From contig NZ_CP054877.1 of NCBI RefSeq assembly GCF_014706615.1, forward strand, positions 310,001 to 374,000: a stretch of DNA of 64,000 nucleotides, in the 5' to 3' direction. The notes beneath the pieces are model-generated. The model searched no databases. It was not told where the DNA came from and saw only the letters and a list, made by a program, of their open reading frames with translations. This DNA comes from Candidatus Vesicomyosocius sp. SY067_SCS001. GTDB taxonomy: Bacteria; Pseudomonadota; Gammaproteobacteria; PS1; Pseudothioglobaceae. This document shows, in pieces, positions 53,995-55,413 of the stretch; positions within the stretch are counted from its first letter, which is position 1; each line of letters begins with the position of its first letter. The translations under genes were made by a program, and so were the position numbers.

Positions 53995-54477
53995 ATGGTT
54001 AAAAAAAATAAAAAAATAAGTTTAAATACCATTGCATTTAATAAAAAAGCAAGGTATGTCTATTTTATCGAACAAACCTTGGAAGCTGGTTTAAGTTTAG
54101 AAGGTTGGGAAGTAAAAAGTTTAAGAGATTCTAAAGTTCAAATTAAGGAAAGTTATGTCATTTTAAGGAGTAATGAGGTATTTTTATATGGTGCACATAT
54201 TTCACCACTGAAAAGCGTATCAACGCATGTTAATTCTAATCCTATCCGTACACGAAAATTATTACTTAATCGTTTAGAGATTAATCGTATTAAGGAGAAG
54301 ATCAATCAGAAAGGTGCTACTATTGTACCGCTTAAGCTTTATTGGATTAGAGGTAGGGTGAAGTTAGAAATTGGTCTGGCTAAAGGTAAAAAATCTTATG
54401 ATAAGCGTCAAGATAATAAATTAAGAGATTGGCAAAGAGATAAACAAAGGGCGCTAAAACAAATAAATTATAGGTAA
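53995..54477 (+). CDS. smpB: SsrA-binding protein SmpB
   Basis: A 160-residue tmRNA partner for rescuing stalled ribosomes. [20 protein letters not shown] (OB-fold start), [19 protein letters not shown] and the basic tail [19 protein letters not shown] are characteristic. The ssrA RNA gene is not directly downstream. Promoter signals must lie inside ratA because the intergenic gap is 14 bases. Confidence 0.97.
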
Positions 54478-54633: not shown

Positions 54634-54900
54634 ATGAACAAATTAGAATTAATCGATGTAATTACGTCAGTAGTAAATTTATCTAAAGTAGACGTCTATC
54701 GATTGTGTATTAAAAGCAACAATAGATGATGCTATTACTGGCTTGATGACTAGTGTGCTTTACTGATCTTGGTAACTTTATTACTAGAAATCATACATGC
54801 TTATAAGTTGTAAATTTATTAATAGGAGTAATGGTTTAAATTAAAGAAATCAAAAGTGACTGACTTTAAAGTAAGTGATTATAAGAAAAATATTCATTGA
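54634..54900 (+). pseudogene. hup: Frame-broken HU (hup) gene
   Basis: From ATG 54634 the frame reads MNKLELIDVITSVVNLSKVDVYR, an HU N-terminus, then hits TGA at 54727. One extra base in the A-run near 54712 restores HU-like ATIDDAITGLM in the +1 frame, with TGA at 54764. In the third frame LGNFITRN matches HU LVGFGTFxxR. Back in the original frame, KSKVTDFKVSDYKKN resembles the HU C-terminus and ends in TGA at 54898-54900. The span (267 bases) nearly equals an intact HU gene (about 273). The disruptions are multiple, so this is a decayed gene, not programmed frameshifting. Confidence 0.85.
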
Positions 54901-54987
54901 TAAACTGTAAAAAGAGTATTTTGGGGGTTCTTTCTATGTCTTAAATTTGGTAAAATTTTAACTCTATTTATGATTAGAGGAGATGTT

Positions 54988-55413
54988 ATGGAACGTACTT
55001 TATCAATTATCAAGCCAGATGCGGTTGCAAAAAATATCATTGGTCAAATTTATTCTCGTTTTGAAGAGGCTGGTTTTAGAATTATTGCTAGTAAAATGAT
55101 TCATCTTGATAATGATGAGGCAGGTGGTTTTTATGTAGTACATAAAGATCGTCAATTTTATGCTGAGCTACTTAAGTTTATGACTTCTGGTCCAATTATG
55201 GTTCAGGTTTTGGAGGGAGAAAATGTTGTTGCTAAACATCGAGAAATTATGGGTTACACTAATCCTAAAGAGGCTAATTCTGGTACTATTCGTGCAGATT
55301 TTGCTAGGTCTTTAGATGAAAATGCAGTGCATGGTTCTGACTCTTTGGAAAATGCTGTTATTGAAATCAAATATTTTTTTAGTAAAGATGATGTTTGTCC
55401 AAGAACTCGTTAG
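54988..55413 (+). CDS. ndk: Nucleoside diphosphate kinase
   Basis: ATG 54988 follows AGAGGAG closely and gives the usual [13 protein letters not shown] start; an ATG 18 bases upstream is less likely. The 141-residue enzyme balances nucleoside triphosphates. The active-site histidine is in [12 protein letters not shown], and the nucleotide-binding IRADFA and [10 protein letters not shown] segments are intact. It precedes rlmN by 49 bases. Confidence 0.97.

What the first reader, a model, noticed from the sequence alone, without database searches (positions are those of the whole stretch)
54634..54900. Full-length but dead hup (HU) gene between smpB and ndk
HU-like peptide segments occur in order in three frames across 267 bases, with in-frame stops at 54727 and 54764 and a one-base insertion in an A-run. 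The start and end are in the same frame, so the ancestral gene length is nearly preserved, implying recent inactivation. Loss of a nucleoid protein is notable unless another HU or IHF copy exists elsewhere.
Basis: partly seen in the sequence, partly recalled or inferred. Interest (0 to 1): 0.65.

Follow-up and report, generated by a model that had tools for sequence, protein, structure and literature searches.

The report
Old HU pseudogene with intact backup
A clam-symbiont bacterium carries the long-dead remains of one of its two HU (DNA-packaging protein) genes, but the second HU gene and both IHF genes are intact, so this is ordinary loss of a redundant copy during genome shrinkage.

Summary
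In detail: a decayed HU gene (hup1) lies between smpB and ndk at 54634-54891 (nhmmer E=1.2e-28, the only hit in the window). Eight genus-mates have an intact 91-codon hup at the same smpB-hup-ndk locus.

"Recent inactivation" is wrong. Three other ~1.0-Mb genomes of the same clade (Ca. Vesicomyosocius) carry the same corpse. All four share five indels (+4, -1, +1, +1, -11), a CAA-to-TAA nonsense change and a lost stop codon. Within the clade the remnant diverges at the neutral rate (0.115-0.134; fourfold sites 0.10-0.12) with no codon-position bias. Its terminator has decayed too. The "A-run insertion" is really a shared 4-bp insertion near 54698, and the true end is about 54891.

The cell has not lost HU. 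A second HU (beside a ppiD-like gene) and both IHF subunits are intact elsewhere, and HU2 is under strong purifying selection.

Mildly interesting extras: a 1.16-Mb genus-mate did the reverse (HU2 dead, HU1 kept), and one clade member has also lost both IHF genes. Buchnera offers a precedent.

The parts
54634..54891 (+). hup1 pseudogene (decayed HU gene)
   Evidence: nhmmer E=1.2e-28; alignment to eight intact orthologues
54698..54704 (+). Shared 4-bp frameshifting insertion (present in all four clade genomes, absent from eight relatives)
   Evidence: alignment
54837..54839 (+). Shared nonsense change CAA to TAA at ancestral codon 70
54878..54882 (+). Site of the shared 11-bp deletion near the 3' end
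54909..54938 (+). Decayed remains of the hup1 terminator; relatives have a strong GCACC/GGTGC-type stem-loop followed by a T run here
   Evidence: alignment and folding
53995..54477 (+). smpB, intact upstream neighbour
   Evidence: ORF and synteny
54970..55413 (+). ndk, intact downstream neighbour (protein start more likely at 54988)
   Evidence: ORF and synteny

Best explanation
One of two HU genes (hup1) became redundant in an ancestor of the Ca. Vesicomyosocius clam symbionts, because a second HU gene (hup2, beside a ppiD-like gene) and IHF remained. It was inactivated by small indels and a nonsense mutation and has since decayed neutrally together with its terminator. It now makes no HU; the nucleoid is served by HU2 and IHF. 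Shown: homology, synteny, shared lesions, neutral divergence, intact HU2/IHF, selection on HU2. Inferred: redundancy as the reason for the loss, and that the remnant is silent. Which lesion came first is unknown.
For: Intact hup at the same locus in eight genus-mates. The same five indels, nonsense codon and lost stop in four assemblies, plus private lesions in each (G008 -36 and a TGA at codon 6; G005 -19; G001 +2; G000 -9). Remnant divergence 0.115-0.134 against 0.102-0.123 at fourfold sites and about 0.047 over whole coding sequence. Variable sites within the clade by codon position 20/15/15 in the remnant, 98/43/180 in neighbouring genes, 1/0/15 in HU2. HU2 protein identical in three of the four genomes, one residue different in the fourth. 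Intact HU2, IHF-alpha-like (next to pheT) and IHF-beta-like (next to rpsA) genes in the window's genome.
Against: No transcript or protein data: it is not shown that HU2 is expressed or that the remnant is silent. The remnant persists at near full length in three of the four genomes, although a neutral remnant of this size may simply not have been deleted yet.
Confidence: 0.96

Rival explanations
1. Sequencing or assembly error in an intact hup gene.
For: Frameshifts at homopolymers are a common error type (general knowledge).
Against: The same lesions in four assemblies, plus a nonsense codon, a lost stop, an 11-bp deletion and substitutions at the neutral rate throughout.
Confidence: 0.005
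2. The remnant has been kept for a new role: an untranslated leader or regulatory RNA for ndk, now that the terminator between them has decayed.
For: The remnant persists in four genomes and the terminator that separated hup1 from ndk is degraded in all of them.
Against: Divergence equals that of fourfold sites and each genome has private indels inside it, up to 36 bp; no Rfam match beyond chance. The short stretch just before ndk is better conserved (0.07-0.096, columns that include the ndk start), which fits a separate ndk promoter or leader.
Confidence: 0.03
3. The N-terminal fragment is still translated as a short peptide with a function.
For: The ATG is kept in all four genomes and G000 has 31 open codons from it.
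Against: G008 has a stop at codon 6, the frame after codon 21 is not HU, and the purine-rich stretch before the ATG is weakened relative to relatives.
Confidence: 0.005

Closest known systems
Loss of recA, mutY and uvrB/uvrC in vesicomyid clam symbionts (PMC3202245, PMC5310779)
   Same: Clade-wide pseudogenes and deletions in the same clade I symbionts, interpreted as reductive genome evolution.
   Different: Those concern DNA repair and recombination genes; a search of the main text of PMC3202245 for hupA, hupB, ihf and nucleoid found nothing.
Loss of HU or IHF in Buchnera strains (PMC3571970)
   Same: DNABII genes lost one by one in reduced symbiont genomes while a paralogue remains; where HU is missing IHF is present and the reverse.
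   Different: In Buchnera the paper describes loss of HU itself or of IHF in different strains; here one of two HU paralogues is lost while HU2 and IHF both remain in the window's genome.

Membership tests
HU / DNABII family (PF00216): ancestral identity of the remnant | Sequence similarity to hup over most of the gene | tested here: met
   nhmmer E=1.2e-28 over profile positions 1-244 of 273
HU / DNABII family (PF00216): ancestral identity of the remnant | Same locus as an intact hup in relatives (smpB-hup-ndk) | tested here: met
   Eight of eight larger-genome genus-mates
Functional HU protein | One open frame of about 90 codons | tested here: not met
   Nine indels, nonsense codon, lost stop
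Functional HU protein | Purifying selection on codons | tested here: not met
   Variable sites 20/15/15 by codon position; divergence equals fourfold sites
Pseudogene of reductive genome evolution | Inactivating lesions, neutral rate, intact orthologues in relatives | tested here: met
Pseudogene of reductive genome evolution | No expressed product | not testable with these tools
   No RNA or protein data are held

The most novel reading that the evidence does not exclude
Different clam-symbiont lineages reached a single HU by reciprocal loss of paralogues (HU1 lost in Ca. Vesicomyosocius, HU2 lost in the 1.16-Mb genome G003), and one Vesicomyosocius genome went on to lose both IHF genes and runs its nucleoid with HU2 as the only DNABII protein: a natural series of steps towards a minimal set.
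Probability: 0.8. Interest if true: 0.3.

Novelty: new member of a known kind. Interest (0 to 1): 0.15.

Why it matters
By itself it is one more redundant gene lost in a shrinking symbiont genome. Together with the relatives it gives a clean phylogenetically ordered series of HU and IHF losses, which shows which nucleoid proteins can be dispensed with when a paralogue remains.

Tried and rejected
Sequencing error (shared lesions). Recent death (shared lesions, neutral divergence). Loss of all HU (HU2 intact). A hidden RNA (Rfam: only a chance-level snoRNA match, E=0.76, far below its gathering score). The consensus promoter/terminator scan was uninformative: it did not report the evident stem-loop of a relative, so alignment and folding were used instead. 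An iqtree run gave no output and FastTree was used. Searches of the held library found no mention of HU/IHF loss in these symbionts, but subscription papers are not held, so this is not proof that it is unreported.

Full report
Setting. The window is bases 310001-374000 of a single-contig genome of 1,032,764 bp. Eleven other genomes of the same genus are held. The window's genome groups with G001, G005 and G008 and is therefore most likely a Ca. Vesicomyosocius, a clade I vesicomyid-clam symbiont.

The observation. Between smpB (53995-54477) and ndk (54970-55413) the window holds a decayed hup gene. A DNA profile of eight intact genus-mate hup genes finds it at E=1.2e-28, the only match in the window. 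In the eight relatives with larger genomes (about 1.16-1.6 Mb) the same place carries an intact 91-codon HU gene. The 'A-run insertion' is really a 4-bp insertion at about 54698-54704, and the ancestral stop codon lies near 54891, not 54900.

Age. The four ~1.0-Mb genomes (G000, G001, G005, G008) form one clade on a 3.7-kb tree of neighbouring genes, support 1.0. All four carry the same +4, -1, +1, +1 and -11 indels, the same CAA-to-TAA change at codon 70 and the lost stop codon; each also has private lesions. Pairwise divergence of the remnant (0.115-0.134) is about that of fourfold-degenerate sites in 17 neighbouring genes (0.102-0.123), while coding sequence as a whole differs by about 0.047. 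Variable sites within the clade fall evenly over codon positions (20/15/15), unlike in neighbouring genes (98/43/180). Differences fixed between the clade and all relatives fall mostly at positions 1 and 2 (24 of 28); the count is biased against position 3, where variation among the relatives disqualifies sites, but it still indicates that constraint was gone for part of the stem lineage. The gene thus died before the clade radiated and has drifted since. The stem-loop terminator between hup and ndk, with a GCACC/GGTGC-type core in the eight relatives, is degraded in all four.

Consequences. The genome keeps three intact DNABII genes. HU2 at C1:631701-631970 lies just upstream of a ppiD-like gene, which recalls the lon-hupB-ppiD order of E. 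coli; an IHF-alpha-like gene at C1:616394 follows pheT and an IHF-beta-like gene at C1:573632 follows rpsA (neighbours identified from their sequences and general knowledge). NCBIfam ranks them HU-beta, IHF-alpha and IHF-beta first, though only the IHF-alpha one reaches a curated cut-off, and only just. HU2 is under strong purifying selection: variable sites by codon position 1/0/15, and the protein is identical in three of the four genomes with one residue different in the fourth. So no HU function need be missing.

Relatives. In G003 the situation is reversed: HU1 is intact and HU2 is dead by indels and stops. The remaining larger genomes have intact copies of both HU genes in the PF00216 search (with HU1 at the ndk locus). 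In G005 both IHF genes are dead too (frameshift right after the start, TGA and a 19-bp deletion in one; a 2-bp deletion, insertions and stops in the other), so HU2 is the only intact DNABII gene found there. Buchnera strains show comparable alternative losses of HU and IHF, ascribed to mutual compensation (PMC3571970), and loss of recA, mutY and nucleotide-excision-repair genes is known in these clam symbionts (PMC3202245, PMC5310779). The held library gave no paper on HU/IHF loss in them.

Verdict. A real, old, neutrally decaying hup1 pseudogene; redundancy with HU2 and IHF is the most likely reason for its loss. It is ordinary reductive evolution, with a modestly interesting comparative pattern.

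Noticed in passing
L028 5540-5810 and L029 5150-5440 (G005:C1:570563 and 613239): Both IHF subunit genes are dead in G005 (by length CP072535.1, Ca. Vesicomyosocius sp. Pext_18_S21), leaving HU2 as its only intact DNABII gene found.
   Followed up: partly
L039 5640-5950 (G003:C1:708655): The ppiD-linked HU2 gene is a pseudogene in the 1.16-Mb genus-mate G003, which keeps HU1 at the smpB-ndk locus: the reverse of the loss in the window's clade.
   Followed up: partly
window 54909-54938: The terminator between hup1 and ndk has decayed in all four clade I genomes, so read-through into ndk may be possible.
   Followed up: partly
L076 (JACCHT010000023.1): A second, divergent smpB-like match (44% identity) lies on a small contig of the Ca. 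Thiodubiliella endoseptemdiera assembly, which also has a normal smpB locus (L058); possibly a contaminant contig.
   Followed up: no
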